From positions 1,488,001 through 1,552,000 of the forward strand of contig NZ_CP046175.1 of assembly GCF_009708215.1 (NCBI RefSeq): a stretch of DNA of 64,000 nt. Reading direction: 5' to 3'. Positions 18,432 to 24,456 of the stretch are shown in pieces (positions within the stretch are counted from its first letter, which is position 1; the number at the start of each line of letters is the position of its first letter). The notes under the pieces are model-generated. The model made no database searches and was not told the origin of the DNA. It saw only the letters and a list, made by a program, of their open reading frames with translations. A program made the position numbers and the translations under genes. The stretch is from Occultella kanbiaonis. Its GTDB lineage: Bacteria; Actinomycetota; Actinomycetes; Actinomycetales; Beutenbergiaceae.

Positions 18432-19895
18432 GTGTCCACGATGGGTGACCTGATCGAGAACCACAGCGACCTGAGCAGCCAGGACGCCGAGTGGCTGCAT
18501 CTGCTGGTGGGGGACTGGCAGGTGATCTCCGACCTGTCCTTCGCCGACCTGGTGCTCTGGTTGCCGACCACCGACGGCGACCTGGTGGCCGTCGCACACG
18601 CGCGCCCCTCGACCGGGGCGACCGTGCACCACGACGACGTGGTCGGCAGGCGCGCCCCCGCCGGACTCAAGACGGCGCTGCTGCAGGCCCTGGAGACCAA
18701 GGAGATCAACCGCGCGCGCGAGGCCCGCTGGAACGGGTCGTTCGCGATCCGCGAGGAGGCCATCCCGGTGGTGCGGGCGGGTCGCATCCTTGCGGTCGTC
18801 GCCCGCGAGACGCACCTCGGTGCGAGCCGCACCCCGAGCCGGCTCGAACTCAACTACGTGGAGTCAGCGGACGAGCTCTGCGGGATGATCGCGCGCGGAG
18901 AGTTCCCGCTGGCGAACGCGGCCACCGGTCCGCGGCGCGGCGCCCCCCGGGTGGGGGACGGACTGGTCCGGCTGAACAGCGAGGGCGAGGTCCTGTACGC
19001 GAGCCCGAACGCGCTCAGCGCGTTCCACCGGCTCGGTGTCAGCGACGAGGTCGTCGGGCAGTCCCTGGCGGAGGTGATCACCCCGCTGCTGGAGGACCAC
19101 TCGCCGGTCGACGAGTCGCTCCCGCTCGTGGTGATGGGCCGGGCGGCGTGGCGCACCGATGTGGAGGCGCGTGGGGTCAGCCTGTCCCTGCGAGCGGTGC
19201 CCGTCACGGAGTACGGCCAGCGCGTCGGAGCGGTCCTGCTCGTGCGCGACGTGTCCGAACTGCGTCGCCGCGAGCGCGAACTCCTCACCAAGGACGCCAC
19301 GATCCGCGAGATCCACCACCGCGTGAAGAACAACCTGCAGACGGTGGCCGCGCTGTTGCGGTTGCAGGCGCGTCGAACCGACTCCGACGAGGCCAAGTCC
19401 GCGCTGAACGAGGCGATGCGTCGGGTTGCGACCATCGCGACGGTGCACGAGGCGTTGTCCCAGACCATCGACGAGGTGGTCGACTTCGACGAGGTCTTCG
19501 GACGCACCCTGCGCCTGGTGGCCGACGTCGCCGCGGGCGAGGCGCACGTCAAGACGGTGCGCGAGGGCGCCTTCGGCCGCGTGCCGGCCACCGACGCGAC
19601 GGCCCTGGCCGTCGTGCTCACCGAACTGGTGACCAACGCCGTCGAGCACGGGCTGGCGACCACCGGCGGCACCGTGACGATCAACTCCCGCCGGGATGGC
19701 CCGATGCTCCGGGTCAGTGTCATCGACGACGGCGTCGGCATGGGCGAGGACCCGCAGATGAAGGGCCTCGGCACCCAGATCGTGCGCACGCTCGTGGCCA
19801 CCGAACTGGATGGGACCATCTCCTGGCAGCCGGTCCCCAGCGGTGGCACGGAGGTCGTCCTCGAGGCCCGCGTCGGCGAGCTGCGGGACTACTGA
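18432..19895 (+). CDS. pdtaS: Sensor histidine kinase, PdtaS-type (HisKA_2 family)
   Basis: A 487-residue cytosolic kinase with no membrane segments. An N-terminal GAF-like domain (about 20-155) is followed by a PAS-like domain (about 175-280: GDGLVRLNSEGEVLYASPNALSAFHRLG). The HisKA_2 phosphoacceptor helix is IREIHHRVKNNLQTVAALLRLQ (His at 295/296), and the HATPase domain has ELVTNAVEHG and VIDDGVGMG. This matches mycobacterial PdtaS, which phosphorylates the ANTAR response regulator PdtaR in nutrient and metal or nitric-oxide sensing. No PdtaR gene is in the window, so it acts on a partner encoded elsewhere. A bidirectional terminator follows. Confidence 0.88.
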   Translation: MSTMGDLIENHSDLSSQDAEWLHLLVGDWQVISDLSFADLVLWLPTTDGDLVAVAHARPSTGATVHHDDVVGRRAPAGLKTALLQALETKEINRAREARWNGSFAIREEAIPVVRAGRILAVVARETHLGASRTPSRLELNYVESADELCGMIARGEFPLANAATGPRRGAPRVGDGLVRLNSEGEVLYASPNALSAFHRLGVSDEVVGQSLAEVITPLLEDHSPVDESLPLVVMGRAAWRTDVEARGVSLSLRAVPVTEYGQRVGAVLLVRDVSELRRRERELLTKDATIREIHHRVKNNLQTVAALLRLQARRTDSDEAKSALNEAMRRVATIATVHEALSQTIDEVVDFDEVFGRTLRLVADVAAGEAHVKTVREGAFGRVPATDATALAVVLTELVTNAVEHGLATTGGTVTINSRRDGPMLRVSVIDDGVGMGEDPQMKGLGTQIVRTLVATELDGTISWQPVPSGGTEVVLEARVGELRDY

Positions 19896-19952: not shown

Positions 19953-20201
19953 TCAGCCGGCGCGGCGGGCGCGGGCGGTGCGGCGCTTCAGCGCGCGGCG
20001 CTCGTCCTCGGACATCCCGCCCCAGACGCCGGCGTCCTGACCGGACTCGATCGCCCACTTCAGGCACGTGTCCACGACGGGGCAGCGACGGCACACGGCC
20101 TTCGCCTCCTCGATCTGCACGAGCGCGGGCCCGGTGTTCCCGATCGGGAAGAAGAGCTCGGGGTCTTCGGTCAGACAGGACGCGTTGTGACGCCAATCCA
20201 T
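19953..20201 (-). CDS. whiB1: WhiB-family iron-sulfur transcription factor, WhiB1 type
   Basis: An 82-residue Wbl protein. Four cysteines for a [4Fe-4S] cluster are present (NASC, AVC, RRC-P, DTC), together with the turn motif GVWGGMSEDERRALKRR and a basic C-terminus. It is nearly collinear with Mycobacterium WhiB1 (MDWRH N-terminus, DPELFFPIGN, SGQDAGVWGG), which binds the primary sigma factor and is nitric-oxide sensitive. AGGAG lies 7 nt before ATG 20201. The upstream 200 bp is unusually AT-rich for this genome, as expected of a complex, strongly regulated promoter. Confidence 0.93.
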   Translation of the reverse strand: MDWRHNASCLTEDPELFFPIGNTGPALVQIEEAKAVCRRCPVVDTCLKWAIESGQDAGVWGGMSEDERRALKRRTARARRAG

Positions 20202-20466
20202 TGCGTTCTCCTAGCGTGGGCGCGTGCGAGTGCGTGGCCATTTTTCAGGCCGAGTTGGGTGGGGGGAGTTCCGCTACTCGCGTGAATCTCTGGGAACAAC
20301 TTTCACATGGTATTTGAACGTGCACAAGGGGTTACGACAAAGTTTCAACTTGGTTGCCGTGAGAGATTGTTCACAGGGTGGACACCTTGAACGGGATGCT
20401 CGTCGTGTGCTCGCCGGGTGGTGCCGGCCCGACGGCGGAGCTCGGCCCGGGTGGTTCCGCGCGCCG
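20202..20466 (-). promoter_or_regulatory. AT-rich regulatory region upstream of whiB1
   Basis: About 260 bp without a gene. 20280-20380 is clearly lower in GC than anything around it and holds TTTCACATGG, TATTTGAAC, AAAGTTTCAAC and GTTCACAG stretches. A loose dyad GTGA-N8-TCAC (20359-20375) resembles a CRP site but has the wrong spacing. It presumably carries the whiB1 promoter; I cannot assign exact -35/-10 boxes. Confidence 0.45.
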
Positions 20467-20472
20467 TAGAGT
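20467..20472 (+). promoter_or_regulatory. -10 box TAGAGT for the 146-residue membrane protein
   Basis: TAGAGT, 7 nt before GTG 20480; leaderless arrangement. Confidence 0.5.
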
Positions 20473-20479
20473 GGTGGCC

Positions 20480-20920
20480 GTGTCTGCGACCTCCACGCCC
20501 CCGGAATCGGACGCGACGAGCCCCGGAGAGCGTCCGTTGCCGCTGCGCGTCGGCCTCGCCGTTGCCCTCCTCGAGGCCGTGGCCCTGGCCGTGATCGGTG
20601 TCGTGTCGCTGGTCCTCTCGCTCTCGGACGATGCGACCTTCGTCGGCTTCGCGGCCGGCGTCCTGGTGTTCCTGGTGTTGATCGCCGGCCTGCTGTTCCT
20701 GGCCGTCCGGGCGCTGTGGAGTGGCAAGCGCTGGGGCCGGGGGCCAGTGATCACCTGGCAGTTGCTGCAGTTCGCGGCCGGGGCGTCCTCGCTGTCCACC
20801 GTGGTCTGGTGGGCTGCGACCGTGCCGATGGTGGCCGCCGTGGTGGTGATCGTGGCGTTGCTCCTGCCGGCGTCGCTCGCGGCGACCTCGGGCTCCGGCG
20901 GGCCGGACGCCGTCGCCTAG
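20480..20920 (+). CDS. Small membrane protein of unknown function
   Basis: A 146-residue protein: a polar, Ser/Thr/Pro-rich N-terminus of about 30 residues, then four predicted helices (about 34-53, 62-84, 92-112 and 118-135) separated by short loops, with the basic WSGKRWGRGPVITWQLLQF between helices 2 and 3. I do not recognise a family with a known role. GTG 20480 is selected for the TAGAGT box 7 nt upstream; GTG 20474 is the alternative. Its stop codon overlaps the stop of the FtsK-like gene through a shared CTAG. Confidence 0.7.
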   Translation: MSATSTPPESDATSPGERPLPLRVGLAVALLEAVALAVIGVVSLVLSLSDDATFVGFAAGVLVFLVLIAGLLFLAVRALWSGKRWGRGPVITWQLLQFAAGASSLSTVVWWAATVPMVAAVVVIVALLLPASLAATSGSGGPDAVA

Positions 20921-23900
20921 CTCGCGAGCTGGACCGGGGTGAGCCGGCCGCCGTCGAGCAGCACCCCGCGGCCCGGCCCGGGATCGTCGTCGGCGTGCCG
21001 GCGCAGGTCCACCCCGGTCAGGTGTGTGGCGCCTCCGACGGGGCCGAGGATGACCATCAGCGGCGCCTCCCGCAGCCGCGCGCCGACCTCGTGGTAGAGA
21101 CCGAGGAGGGCCTCCGGGCGGGCGGCCGCGAGCACGGCGAGGTCCACGCGCTCGCTCGCCTCGGCGATCGCGGTGAGGGTTGCCGCCGGCAGCCGGTCGG
21201 CGTCATCGAGGAGCAGGACCGGGCCGCGTGCGCGCACGACCGGGTCGCCGACACCCGGGGGTCGGGTCGCACCAGGGGAGGCAGCGGCCCGGAGGGCGGC
21301 GAGCCCGTCGGGCCCGTCGATGACCACGCGGCCGCCGGACCGGAGCTGCCCACCCAACATCCGGAGCGCGCAGGTCCGCCCGGAGCCGGCCGGTCCGGCG
21401 ACCAGCCAGGTGCCGCCGTCGGGCAGGTCACGCACGATCGGGCCGGCATCATCCCCACCCACGCCGAGCACGAGTCCGGCTCGTGCACCGTCGGGCTCGC
21501 CGACGTCGGCCAGCGGGGCCGTGGCAGGCAGGGCGACCAGGCGGACGGGAGCCCGGGCTGGGGCACGGTAGGAGTCGGGAGCGGTCGCCGCGAGGGCGAC
21601 CTGGGCCACCCGAGCCGCGCCCGAGGTGATCAGCACGCCCCGCCCCGCCGGCCAGCCGGTGCCCACGAGGTCCTTCGGGATCCCGGCAAGGAGGGCTTCG
21701 CTGATGTCCTGCGGTCGCAGCACCAACCGGTCGGCCACGAGCGGCGCAAAGCGGGTCGGTGTGCCGGCGCAGGTCAGCACCACCCCGACGCCGACGCGGC
21801 GGGCCCGGCGGAGCAGCGCGGTCATCAGGTCCATCCCGGTGCCGACGCCCCCGGACTCGTCGAGCGCGCGGCAGAGGACGTCGACGTCGTCGACGAGCAG
21901 CACCGCCGGACCGGCGGCGCCCCCGGTGAGCAGTTCGACGAGCCGCCGCGCACGGCGGGAGTCCTCGGGCCCGCACTGGGTGCCGTGGGTGGGGGTGTCT
22001 GTCCCGGGCGAGGTGCCGCCGGACCGAGGGACGATCGCGGCCAGGTCCTCGGCGATCACGTGCGTCGCCAGGCCGGCCCGGTGCGCCATCTCGGCCAGCG
22101 TGCGCAGCGCGGTGGTCCGGCCGGACCCGGGCGGCCCGCTGACGAGCAGCGTGGACGCGGGCGGCCAGGACCAGCTGCCGAGGGCCTGCTCCTCGGGCAG
22201 GTCGGTGCGCAGGAACGGCAGGGCCGTGGGGGTGGGCCGCCCCCGGCCGGAGTCCGGTGCGCCACCGGGCTCGACGGCTGGGGCGCCGAGCTCGGCCTCG
22301 AGTTCGTCGACGTCGATGCGGCCCGGCAACGGTTCGGCCCACGGGCGCGGGCGCCGGGTCCGCCACGGCTCGCGTGCCTCGACGTCGGCCGCGGCGGCCA
22401 CGAGCCGGCCCACAAGGGCCGGGACCGTGCCGGCGTCCGGTGGGCCGGTCCAGGGCACCTGCAGAGTCGTCCGCTCACCGGCCAGGACCACCGCGCGCCC
22501 CGGCACCGGCGGGAGCCGGGCGGCCGACGCGTCACCGACGAGGTCGATCGAGTCGGCGTCCTCGAGCACCCGCAGGCAGATCCGCACGGTGAGGTTGGCG
22601 CGCATGTCCGGTGTCACCGCACCGGCGGGTCGCTGGGTGGCGAGCACCAGGTGGATGCCGAGCGAGCGCCCCTGGGCGGCCAGCCGCACCAGCGCGTCGA
22701 GGAAGTCCGGGTGCTCGGCGGCCATCGCCCGGAACTCGTCGACCATCACGACCAGGGCCGGCGGACGTTCCTCGGGCGGGACACGGGCGCGGTGTTCGGC
22801 GAGGGTCGACGTGCCGGACGTGGCCAGCAGCCGCTCTCGGCGGCGCAGTTCCGCGCGCAGGCTGGCCAGGGCCCTGGCGGTGTCCGCAGCATCGAGATCG
22901 GTGAGCACCCCGGCGGCGTGCGGCAGGTCCGCGACCGGTCCGAACGTCGCGCCGCCCTTGTAGTCGATGAGCACCAGGGCCAGGTCCGCGGGGGAGCGGG
23001 CGTGGGCCAGCCCGAGCAGCCACGACAACAGCAGTTCGGACTTGCCCGACCCGGTGGTGCCGGCCACGAGCGCGTGCGGTCCGTCCACGCCGAGGTCGAG
23101 CCGGAGCGGGCCGGCGGGACCGACGCCGATCACGGCCGACAGCCCGGAGTCCTCGGCCCAGCACTGGAGGATCCCGGCGACGTCGCCCGGGCCGACCACC
23201 GCGCCGATCGGCACCGTCGCGGGGAGCCCTTCGGCGTGGCGGGTGGCCGCGGCGACGGCGGCGCACACCCTGGCTGCCCAGCGCTCGCCGACCCGACGGT
23301 CGTGGCCCGGCCCGACCTCGATCGTCCGCTCGCACCAGGGCGGCACCTCGGTCAGGTCCCGGGCGAGCACGATGCGCACGCCATCGGCTCCGGGTGGCAC
23401 GTCCGGCCGTTCGGCCACCTGGACGGTGAGTCGTTCGGGTCCGCCGCCGGGGGCACGGTGCGGCAGCGTCGTCGCCCAGGCCCACGCGGCCGGCAGGTCC
23501 AGCTGCACCCGCGTCGCCGGGTGCCGCACCGCGAGCCGACAGACCAGCCAGCGGGCGAGCGCGGCCACGTCCTCGTCGTCGCCGACCAGGGCCAGTGCGC
23601 CGGGCGCGCCGGGCAGGTACCTGGCCCGTTCGTGGTCGCGCCGGGCGCGAGCGGACGACGGCGGTGCGCGCCGTCGGGTGGTTTGGCTCGCGTTACCGAT
23701 CTCCCACCTCGGCAGGTGGTCCGTGGCCCGGTCGGTGGCGGCGCGCGGCGGTGCGCCGGCGCTCATCAGCAGACCCGCCGGGTCGTCCGGGCCGAGGTCC
23801 GGCTCCGGCTCGGCGGGTGTCTCCGGCCGGCTCCGCTCGCCTCGGCGACGTCGCCGTTGCGCCAGCAGCGGCCACACGACGGAGCCGACCAGCACCAGGG

Positions 23901-24456
23901 GGAGCGCGATCGCCACCACGACCCGCCACGCACCCGATCCCGAGAGCAGCAACGGCACCGAGGTCACACACATGATCAGCGGGAACATCAGCCGCCCGAG
24001 CAGACCGTCGCCGACACCCGACGGCTGCGCGGGCCCGGTCCGGTCCCGCAGGGAGGGGTGGCGCCGAACCTCGATGACGCTCGTGCCGGCCCGGAGCAGG
24101 TCGCCCTCGCGCAGGGCACGCCACCCGGTCCGCACCCGGCGCGACCGTCGGCCCGGGATGGGCGCATCGGCACGTGGCCCCCTACGGGCACGGACCATCG
24201 TGGTGCCGTTCGCGGAGCCCAGGTCCCGGGCGCGCAGGCGCCCGCCGCGCGCGCTCACCAGGACGTGTTCACGGGAGAGCGACGGGTCCTCGAGCGCGAG
24301 CGAGGCCGTCGGGCCACGGCCCACCAGGACCGGCTGGGCGCCGAGCGGCGCCACCCAACCCGGGTCCGGCCCGGCTATCACGGCCAGATGGAATCGGGTC
24401 GTGGCCGGGGCGGGTCCCGCGCGCCCTGCGCGCCCGCCGGGCATGTCTGTGGGCAT
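20917..24456 (-). CDS. FHA domain - FtsK/SpoIIIE triple-ATPase protein (EccC/EssC-like)
   Basis: A 1179-residue membrane ATPase. The N-terminal FHA domain (about 40-130) has the phosphothreonine-binding pattern VGRG, SLSREH and SANGTT. Two membrane helices follow (about 155-175 and 178-198), then a cytoplasmic linker and three P-loop ATPase modules. The first is complete (Walker A GTTGSGKS at 466-473, Walker B LVVMVDEF at about 568-575). The second (GPPGSGRTT, about 774) and third (GPAGSGRTC, about 1021) have Arg replacing the lysine of GKT, so nucleotide hydrolysis there is doubtful. This layout resembles type VII secretion ATPases (EssC has N-terminal FHA domains). No WXG100 or other T7SS gene is nearby. 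Start ATG 24456 or 24444. Single gene; substrate unknown. Confidence 0.85.
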   Translation of the reverse strand: MPTDMPGGRAGRAGPAPATTRFHLAVIAGPDPGWVAPLGAQPVLVGRGPTASLALEDPSLSREHVLVSARGGRLRARDLGSANGTTMVRARRGPRADAPIPGRRSRRVRTGWRALREGDLLRAGTSVIEVRRHPSLRDRTGPAQPSGVGDGLLGRLMFPLIMCVTSVPLLLSGSGAWRVVVAIALPLVLVGSVVWPLLAQRRRRRGERSRPETPAEPEPDLGPDDPAGLLMSAGAPPRAATDRATDHLPRWEIGNASQTTRRRAPPSSARARRDHERARYLPGAPGALALVGDDEDVAALARWLVCRLAVRHPATRVQLDLPAAWAWATTLPHRAPGGGPERLTVQVAERPDVPPGADGVRIVLARDLTEVPPWCERTIEVGPGHDRRVGERWAARVCAAVAAATRHAEGLPATVPIGAVVGPGDVAGILQCWAEDSGLSAVIGVGPAGPLRLDLGVDGPHALVAGTTGSGKSELLLSWLLGLAHARSPADLALVLIDYKGGATFGPVADLPHAAGVLTDLDAADTARALASLRAELRRRERLLATSGTSTLAEHRARVPPEERPPALVVMVDEFRAMAAEHPDFLDALVRLAAQGRSLGIHLVLATQRPAGAVTPDMRANLTVRICLRVLEDADSIDLVGDASAARLPPVPGRAVVLAGERTTLQVPWTGPPDAGTVPALVGRLVAAAADVEAREPWRTRRPRPWAEPLPGRIDVDELEAELGAPAVEPGGAPDSGRGRPTPTALPFLRTDLPEEQALGSWSWPPASTLLVSGPPGSGRTTALRTLAEMAHRAGLATHVIAEDLAAIVPRSGGTSPGTDTPTHGTQCGPEDSRRARRLVELLTGGAAGPAVLLVDDVDVLCRALDESGGVGTGMDLMTALLRRARRVGVGVVLTCAGTPTRFAPLVADRLVLRPQDISEALLAGIPKDLVGTGWPAGRGVLITSGAARVAQVALAATAPDSYRAPARAPVRLVALPATAPLADVGEPDGARAGLVLGVGGDDAGPIVRDLPDGGTWLVAGPAGSGRTCALRMLGGQLRSGGRVVIDGPDGLAALRAAASPGATRPPGVGDPVVRARGPVLLLDDADRLPAATLTAIAEASERVDLAVLAAARPEALLGLYHEVGARLREAPLMVILGPVGGATHLTGVDLRRHADDDPGPGRGVLLDGGRLTPVQLAS

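What the first reader, a model, noticed from the sequence alone, without database searches (positions are those of the whole stretch)
20917..24456. Orphan FHA-FtsK/SpoIIIE triple ATPase with Arg in place of Lys in two P-loops
The protein looks like a type VII secretion motor (FHA, two helices, three ATPase modules), but no WXG100, EccD, EccB or EccE gene is near. Modules 2 and 3 read GPPGSGRTT and GPAGSGRTC: catalytic Lys replaced by Arg, suggesting binding-only modules. The single FHA domain would bind a phosphothreonine partner. It may be part of a minimal or dispersed secretion system controlled by Ser/Thr kinases.
Basis: partly seen in the sequence, partly recalled or inferred. Interest (0 to 1): 0.55.

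Follow-up and report, generated by a model that had tools for sequence, protein, structure and literature searches.

The report
Stand-alone type VII secretion-like motor
An actinobacterial genome carries, away from its ordinary type VII secretion genes, an old and conserved secretion-motor-like gene, and related genomes nearly always pair it with one equally isolated small WXG100 gene, which suggests a secretion system whose parts are scattered over the chromosome.

Summary
The ORF is real (20917-24456, minus, 1179 aa): FHA, two hydrophobic helices, an EccC-type DUF module, intact ATPase module D1, then D2 and D3 with Arg for the P-loop Lys. It is under purifying selection and syntenic in the 4 Occultella genomes seen. 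The genome has a T7SSa locus with its own EccC-like gene and a second FHA-FtsK cluster with weak WXG100 genes, so this is a third, separate ATPase. Its clade is sister to the TsdC-like one; 24 members, from 10 of 18 sampled families, lie near a PdtaS-like kinase and WhiB gene. Arg in D2 marks the clade and is not decay of this copy. Unexpectedly, 28 of 29 genomes with the clade also carry one lone WXG100 gene with a YxxxE tail, far from the ATPase; the 4 genomes without the ATPase lack it. In 4 near-complete genomes these two are the only T7-type ATPase and WXG100 found. Best reading (0.5): a motor of the EccC/EssC lineage driving a dispersed WXG100 export system. Partnership and export are inferred, not shown. 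FHA phosphothreonine residues are complete in only half of the readable members, so kinase control is not general.

The parts
20917..24456 (-). Stand-alone FHA-EccC/EssC-like ATPase gene, 1179 aa
24052..24399 (-). FHA region (aa 20-135), GR..S..H..NG residues complete
   Evidence: Pfam hit aa 43-90; motif table; boundaries chosen by me
23854..24006 (-). Two hydrophobic helices (aa 151-201)
   Evidence: hydropathy
23182..23601 (-). Degenerate DUF/D0 module (about aa 286-425)
   Evidence: profile A2 positions 209-494 match EccC3 6lar residues 8-337; boundaries chosen by me
22417..23181 (-). ATPase module D1 (about aa 426-680), Walker A GTTGSGKSE and Walker B VDEF intact
   Evidence: lowest Ka/Ks
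21607..22206 (-). Module D2 (about aa 751-950); P-loop GPPGSGRTT at 22111-22137
   Evidence: boundaries chosen by me
20920..21606 (-). Module D3 (about aa 951-1179); P-loop GPAGSGRTC at 21370-21396
   Evidence: boundaries chosen by me
20378..20920 (+). Small hydrophobic membrane protein, convergent with the ATPase gene and overlapping its stop by a few bases
   Evidence: no Pfam family; matches beside the ATPase in many but not all relatives
19953..20201 (-). WhiB transcription factor gene, conserved neighbour
   Evidence: PF02467 E 4e-27
18432..19895 (+). PdtaS-like histidine kinase gene, conserved neighbour
   Evidence: GAF_PdtaS PF12282 E 7.9e-53

Best explanation
The protein is a membrane-anchored motor of the EccC/EssC/TsxC lineage that has become a stand-alone chromosomal gene. 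Its substrate or activator is most likely the single WXG100 protein encoded far away (own genome C1:4578196-4578483 plus stop). Proposed mechanism: D1 hydrolyses ATP; D2 and D3, with Arg P-loops, serve as sensing or gating modules, as proposed for degenerate D2/D3 of EccC/EssC; the lone WXG100 protein, perhaps as a homodimer, presents its C-terminal YxxxE helix to the motor and is exported. Where the FHA domain is intact, a phosphothreonine protein may recruit or switch the motor. Shown from sequence: lineage, modules, purifying selection, conserved place, co-occurrence. Inferred: partnership, export, oligomer, gating, homodimer.
For: Profile of 11 clade members matches EccC/EssC structures over helices, DUF, D1 and D2 (4nh0 8.2e-128, 9qks 5.1e-106, 7np7 5.3e-96, 6lar 8.3e-16). 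D1 Walker A Lys and Walker B Asp-Glu in 29 of 29 clade rows. 28 of 29 genomes with the clade have the lone WXG100, 0 of 4 without it (Fisher p 1.2e-4, not corrected for kinship). G006, G025 and G026 keep other T7-type ATPases and WXG100 genes but lack both the clade ATPase and the lone WXG100. G016, G018, G019 and G021 have one T7-type ATPase (this clade) and one PF06013 hit (the lone type). Lone WXG100: WxG and C-terminal YxxxD/E in 28 of 28, against 0 of 12 in the rows of TsdC-type or other loci. Three clade members (L085, L089, L091) have a WXG100-like ORF close by.
Against: No physical, expression or secretion evidence. G014 has the ATPase and no PF06013 hit at E 1e-3. Co-loss rests on 4 genomes, one of them (G025) 91% complete in 250 contigs, and kinship is not corrected. 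The lone WXG100 of each genome was chosen by me among the hits. In 24 genomes including this one other T7-type ATPases or other WXG100 genes may exist that could serve the lone protein instead. The clade branch has SH-aLRT 93, unstarred, with two long branches (L088, L090) joined; G021 depends on L088. No membrane partner is identified. The AlphaFold2 model was useless (pLDDT 30.6).
Confidence: 0.5

Rival explanations
1. A third T7SS-type ATPase that works in trans with the genome's T7SSa membrane parts or with the second FHA-FtsK cluster, as an alternative or regulatory motor.
For: The own genome and the other Occultella genomes carry an EccC-like and a TsdC-like ATPase beside it; D1 modules are 39-48% identical.
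Against: G016, G018, G019 and G021 have the clade ATPase without any other T7-type ATPase detected; in G018 no EccB, EccD or mycosin relative was seen in 66.9% of the genome, while the same queries found them in G025.
Confidence: 0.2
2. A motor or regulator with a non-secretory job, for instance in envelope or DNA handling, linked to the PdtaS-WhiB locus; the WXG100 co-occurrence is ancestry only.
For: Constant place near pdtaS-like and whiB genes in 24 genomes; no WXG100 gene there; D2/D3 are diverged.
Against: Closest relatives by profile are secretion ATPases, with FtsK well below; a separate FtsK-like protein exists at C1:2064048; co-absence with the lone WXG100 in 4 genomes; a sub-clade with a WXG100-like ORF close by.
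Confidence: 0.27
3. A decaying duplicate of a T7SS ATPase without function.
For: It evolves faster than its neighbours (Ka/Ks 0.30-0.34 against 0.01-0.04 for the histidine kinase); the frame is split in G005 and G011.
Against: Open frame and purifying selection in Occultella, strongest in D1; kept in 10 families at one place; D1 catalytic residues in 29 of 29 rows.
Confidence: 0.03

Closest known systems
T7SSd ATPase TsdC (Garrett et al. 2024, PMC11217815)
   Same: Actinomycetota; FHA at the N terminus of an EccC/EssC-type ATPase; phosphothreonine site reported conserved there and complete in the window protein
   Different: TsdC is described within a gene cluster with a WXG100 protein, kinase and a large Ig-like protein; none of these is beside this gene. 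The own genome's TsdC-like protein is a different gene (33.6% identity over 738 aa). Olsenella TsdC itself was not compared.
EccC of T7SSa
   Same: Two helices, DUF, D1-D3; D1 intact, D2/D3 degenerate
   Different: EccC has no FHA domain (PMC11217815); NCBIfam EccCa and EccCb cut-offs are not reached (196 of 509 and 161 of 347 bits); no EccB or EccD beside it
EssC/YukB of T7SSb
   Same: FHA at the N terminus; systems with a single WXG100 protein
   Different: EssC is reported with two FHA domains lacking the phosphothreonine site (PMC11217815); NCBIfam EssC cut-off not reached (225 of 778 bits)
Second eccC of Actinotignum schaalii (PMC5720513, passages)
   Same: A FtsK-SpoIIIE ATPase gene away from the esx cluster in an actinobacterium
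   Different: Only mentioned there; not analysed and not compared here

Membership tests
EccC/EssC ATPase lineage | Helices, DUF, D1 and further FtsK-like modules in one chain | tested here: met
EccC/EssC ATPase lineage | Active D1: GxxGxGK[S/T] and hhhhDE | tested here: met
   29 of 29 clade rows
EccC (T7SSa) or EssC (T7SSb) equivalog | Curated NCBIfam cut-offs | tested here: not met
   224.9 of 778.4, 196 of 509.15, 161.2 of 346.55 bits
Type VII secretion system locus | WXG100 gene encoded with the ATPase | tested here: not met
   none in the window and the other 23 pdtaS-whiB-linked stretches; G030 has a weak hit (24.2 bits, below cut-off) about 10 kb away on the same contig, outside the stretch
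T7SSd | FHA-bearing ATPase | tested here: met
T7SSd | Kinase TsdD, TsdH, TsdI and TsdA in the cluster | tested here: inconclusive
   No WXG100 gene and none of the Pfam-scanned neighbours is a Ser/Thr kinase or Ig-like protein; TsdH and divergent forms not searched
T7SSd | Sequence kinship to Olsenella TsdC | not tested
   No sequence of it was fetched
FtsK DNA translocase | Curated FtsK cut-off | tested here: not met
   62.4 of 1566 bits; a separate FtsK-like protein at C1:2064048
Phosphothreonine-binding FHA | GR, S..H and NG residues | tested here: met
   Window protein and 12 further rows of 26 readable; binding itself not testable
Dispersed WXG100 export system (proposed here) | Co-occurrence of ATPase and lone WXG100 | tested here: met
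   28 of 29 against 0 of 4, not corrected for kinship
Dispersed WXG100 export system (proposed here) | Export of the lone WXG100 by this ATPase | not testable with these tools
   needs the bench

The most novel reading that the evidence does not exclude
An order-wide, vertically inherited, scattered two-gene type VII system: a stand-alone FHA-EccC-like motor near pdtaS and whiB and a monocistronic WXG100 substrate elsewhere, working without EccB/EccD-type membrane parts.
Probability: 0.35. Interest if true: 0.75.

Novelty: new variant of a known kind. Interest (0 to 1): 0.55.

Why it matters
T7SS are found and classified by gene clusters. A motor and a WXG100 protein kept far apart across many families would be missed by such surveys, would contradict the published statement that actinobacterial WXG100 genes are bicistronic without exception (PMC3935865, passages), and would give natural small systems (G016, G018, G019, G021) in which the least set of parts for T7-type export can be tested directly.

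Tried and rejected
Arg P-loops as decay of this copy: rejected; degenerate D2/D3 are reported for EccC/EssC in general (PMC11154593, passages).

AlphaFold2 on the 4-sequence alignment gave mean pLDDT 30.6 and was not used; no fold search was run. The plasmid collection gave partial matches only (59 records, none covering 80% of the query). Discarded: the FtsX value against L018 (off frame), the row L091:6223-6480 (wrong strand), and antisense frames among the neighbours. The WXG100 tree is too short for firm resolution; the lone type needs 2 changes on it, not 1.

Choices to declare: the 'lone' hit of each genome was picked by me as one not beside an EccC-like or TsdC-like gene, then checked by similarity. 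A gene that I call HD-type, a DUF4031 gene or a GroEL gene is in the stretch for 26 of 28; not for L099 and L117. GroEL, HD-type, MoxR, DUF58, transglutaminase and kinase labels are my reading of the sequences; DUF4031 is a Pfam hit, the HD-type protein has none. The EccC label of C1:1174652 rests on its locus and FtsK domains; it was not scanned with an EccC model. G027 is counted as ATPase-positive from a fragment at a contig end (L086), left out of the tree. The tree is the quick method.
Full report
Observation. The ORF is as described: 1179 aa on the minus strand, FHA domain, two hydrophobic helices, FtsK_SpoIIIE module D1 with GTTGSGKSE, then GPPGSGRTT and GPAGSGRTC. A profile of 11 clade members (alignment A2) matches solved EccC/EssC proteins over the helices, DUF, D1 and D2: 4nh0 (8.2e-128), 9qks YukB (5.1e-106), 7np7 EccC5 (5.3e-96), 6lar EccC3 (8.3e-16). 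A degenerate DUF module is therefore present too.

Genome. The window lies in a 5.65 Mb single-contig genome; the three named relatives found are Occultella species. PF01580 marks, besides this gene, C1:2064048 (FtsK-like, 925-aa frame), the EccC-like gene 1174652-1178641, a 1564-aa FHA-FtsK protein at 909442-914136, a 693-aa frame at 3444935 and a weak hit at 4757401. The EccC-like gene lies in a T7SSa locus: EccB and EccD pass their NCBIfam cut-offs, a mycosin-like subtilase is below its cut-off (139 of 279 bits), two PF06013 hits lie near; EccE was not looked for. The 909442 locus holds two WXG100-like ORFs below cut-off, a Fn3 protein, and genes that I read as MoxR, DUF58, transglutaminase and Ser/Thr kinase.

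Relatives. Four of 4 Occultella genomes have the gene; three named records show the same neighbours. Ka/Ks is 0.30-0.34 overall, 0.11-0.22 in D1, 0.23-0.36 in the FHA region, 0.33-0.44 in D2/D3, against 0.01-0.04 for the neighbouring histidine kinase. In all, 33 genomes of 18 GTDB families were searched (16 genomes of the own family, one of each other). The tree of 39 rows (quick) has a TsdC-like clade (7 rows, 99*) and a clade with the window protein (29 rows, SH-aLRT 93, not starred; L088 and L090 are long and joined); EccC is the outgroup. Of the 29 rows, 24 have a PdtaS-like kinase and a WhiB gene in the stretch, in 10 families: within about 1 kb of WhiB in 20, 2.6-2.7 kb in L076 and L078, 4.2 kb in L079 and 6.2 kb in L075. 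L084 is on a 5 kb contig; for L085, L088, L089 and L091 the two genes were not seen. The 29 rows are 28 genomes; the fragment in G027 makes 29. The frame is split in G005 and G011.

WXG100. In G030 a weak PF06013 hit (24.2 bits, below cut-off) lies about 10 kb from the ATPase, outside the stretch. Genome-wide PF06013 searches (33 genomes) gave in 28 of the 29 clade genomes a WXG100 gene away from the other ATPases; it resembles own C1:4578196-4578483 (38-100% identity), and in 26 of 28 stretches an HD-type, DUF4031 or GroEL gene lies near. Each of the 28 stretches holds one WXG100-like ORF at E 1e-3. All 28 keep WxG and a C-terminal YxxxD/E; of 4 rows of EccC-linked pairs 3 have it, of 12 other rows none. 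G006, G017, G025 and G026 have neither gene; G014 has the ATPase alone. Fisher p is 1.2e-4 without correction for kinship. In G016, G018, G019 and G021 this pair is all of the T7 kind that the searches found. In G018 the ATPase is 661 aa, without FHA and with Lys in D2, and in 66.9% of that genome no EccB, EccD or mycosin relative was seen, while the same queries found them in G025.

P-loops and FHA (my reading of the table). D1 Lys and Asp-Glu: 29 of 29. D2 Arg: 25 of 28 readable (not L080, L088, L090). D3 Arg: 23 of 27 (not L080, L081, L083, L088). TsdC-like rows: D2 Lys 7 of 7, D3 Arg 7 of 7. Arg in D2 therefore marks the clade. FHA binding residues are complete in 13 of 26 readable rows (L041, L047 and L090 set aside).

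Literature. PMC11217815 (parts 1, 2, 3 and 5 of 7 read) describes T7SSd, with FHA-bearing TsdC, as a gene cluster in Actinomycetota. PMC11154593 (passages): D2/D3 of EccC/EssC degenerate and proposed regulatory. PMC3935865 (passages): actinobacterial WXG100 genes said to be bicistronic without exception, and YxxxD/E as the T7SS signal; the lone genes here contradict the first. PMC5720513 (passages) mentions a second eccC elsewhere in one genome. PMC9415070 (passages) adds nothing here. Searches listed no paper that I recognised as describing a pdtaS-whiB-linked EccC-like gene or a conserved lone actinobacterial WXG100; they cover openly licensed PMC text only, and most listed papers were not opened.

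Conclusion. A stand-alone motor of the EccC/EssC lineage, old in the order, most likely (0.5) the engine of a dispersed WXG100 export system. The lineage is well supported; the partnership is a testable inference.

Noticed in passing
Own genome C1:904494-925474 (L016, L029): A second T7-type cluster: two WXG100-like ORFs, a 1564-aa FHA-FtsK ATPase, a Fn3 protein, and genes read as MoxR, DUF58, transglutaminase and Ser/Thr kinase with Fn3; it resembles T7SSd.
   Followed up: partly
Own genome C1:4578196-4578483 (L005:9197-9484): Lone WXG100 gene with YxxxE tail, found in 28 of 33 genomes at a mostly conserved place.
   Followed up: yes
window 20378-20920 (+): Small membrane protein convergent with the ATPase gene, evolving about as fast as it (69% identity in L019) and beside it in many relatives; no Pfam family.
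   Followed up: partly
L090:8116-10098 (G018): A 661-aa short form of the ATPase beside pdtaS-like and whiB genes, without FHA, in a 1.8 Mb genome.
   Followed up: partly
L047 (G005) and L050 (G011): The ATPase gene is split over two frames; disruption or sequencing error.
   Followed up: no
L085, L089, L091: A sub-clade of the ATPase with a WXG100-like ORF close by and a degenerate FHA domain.
   Followed up: partly
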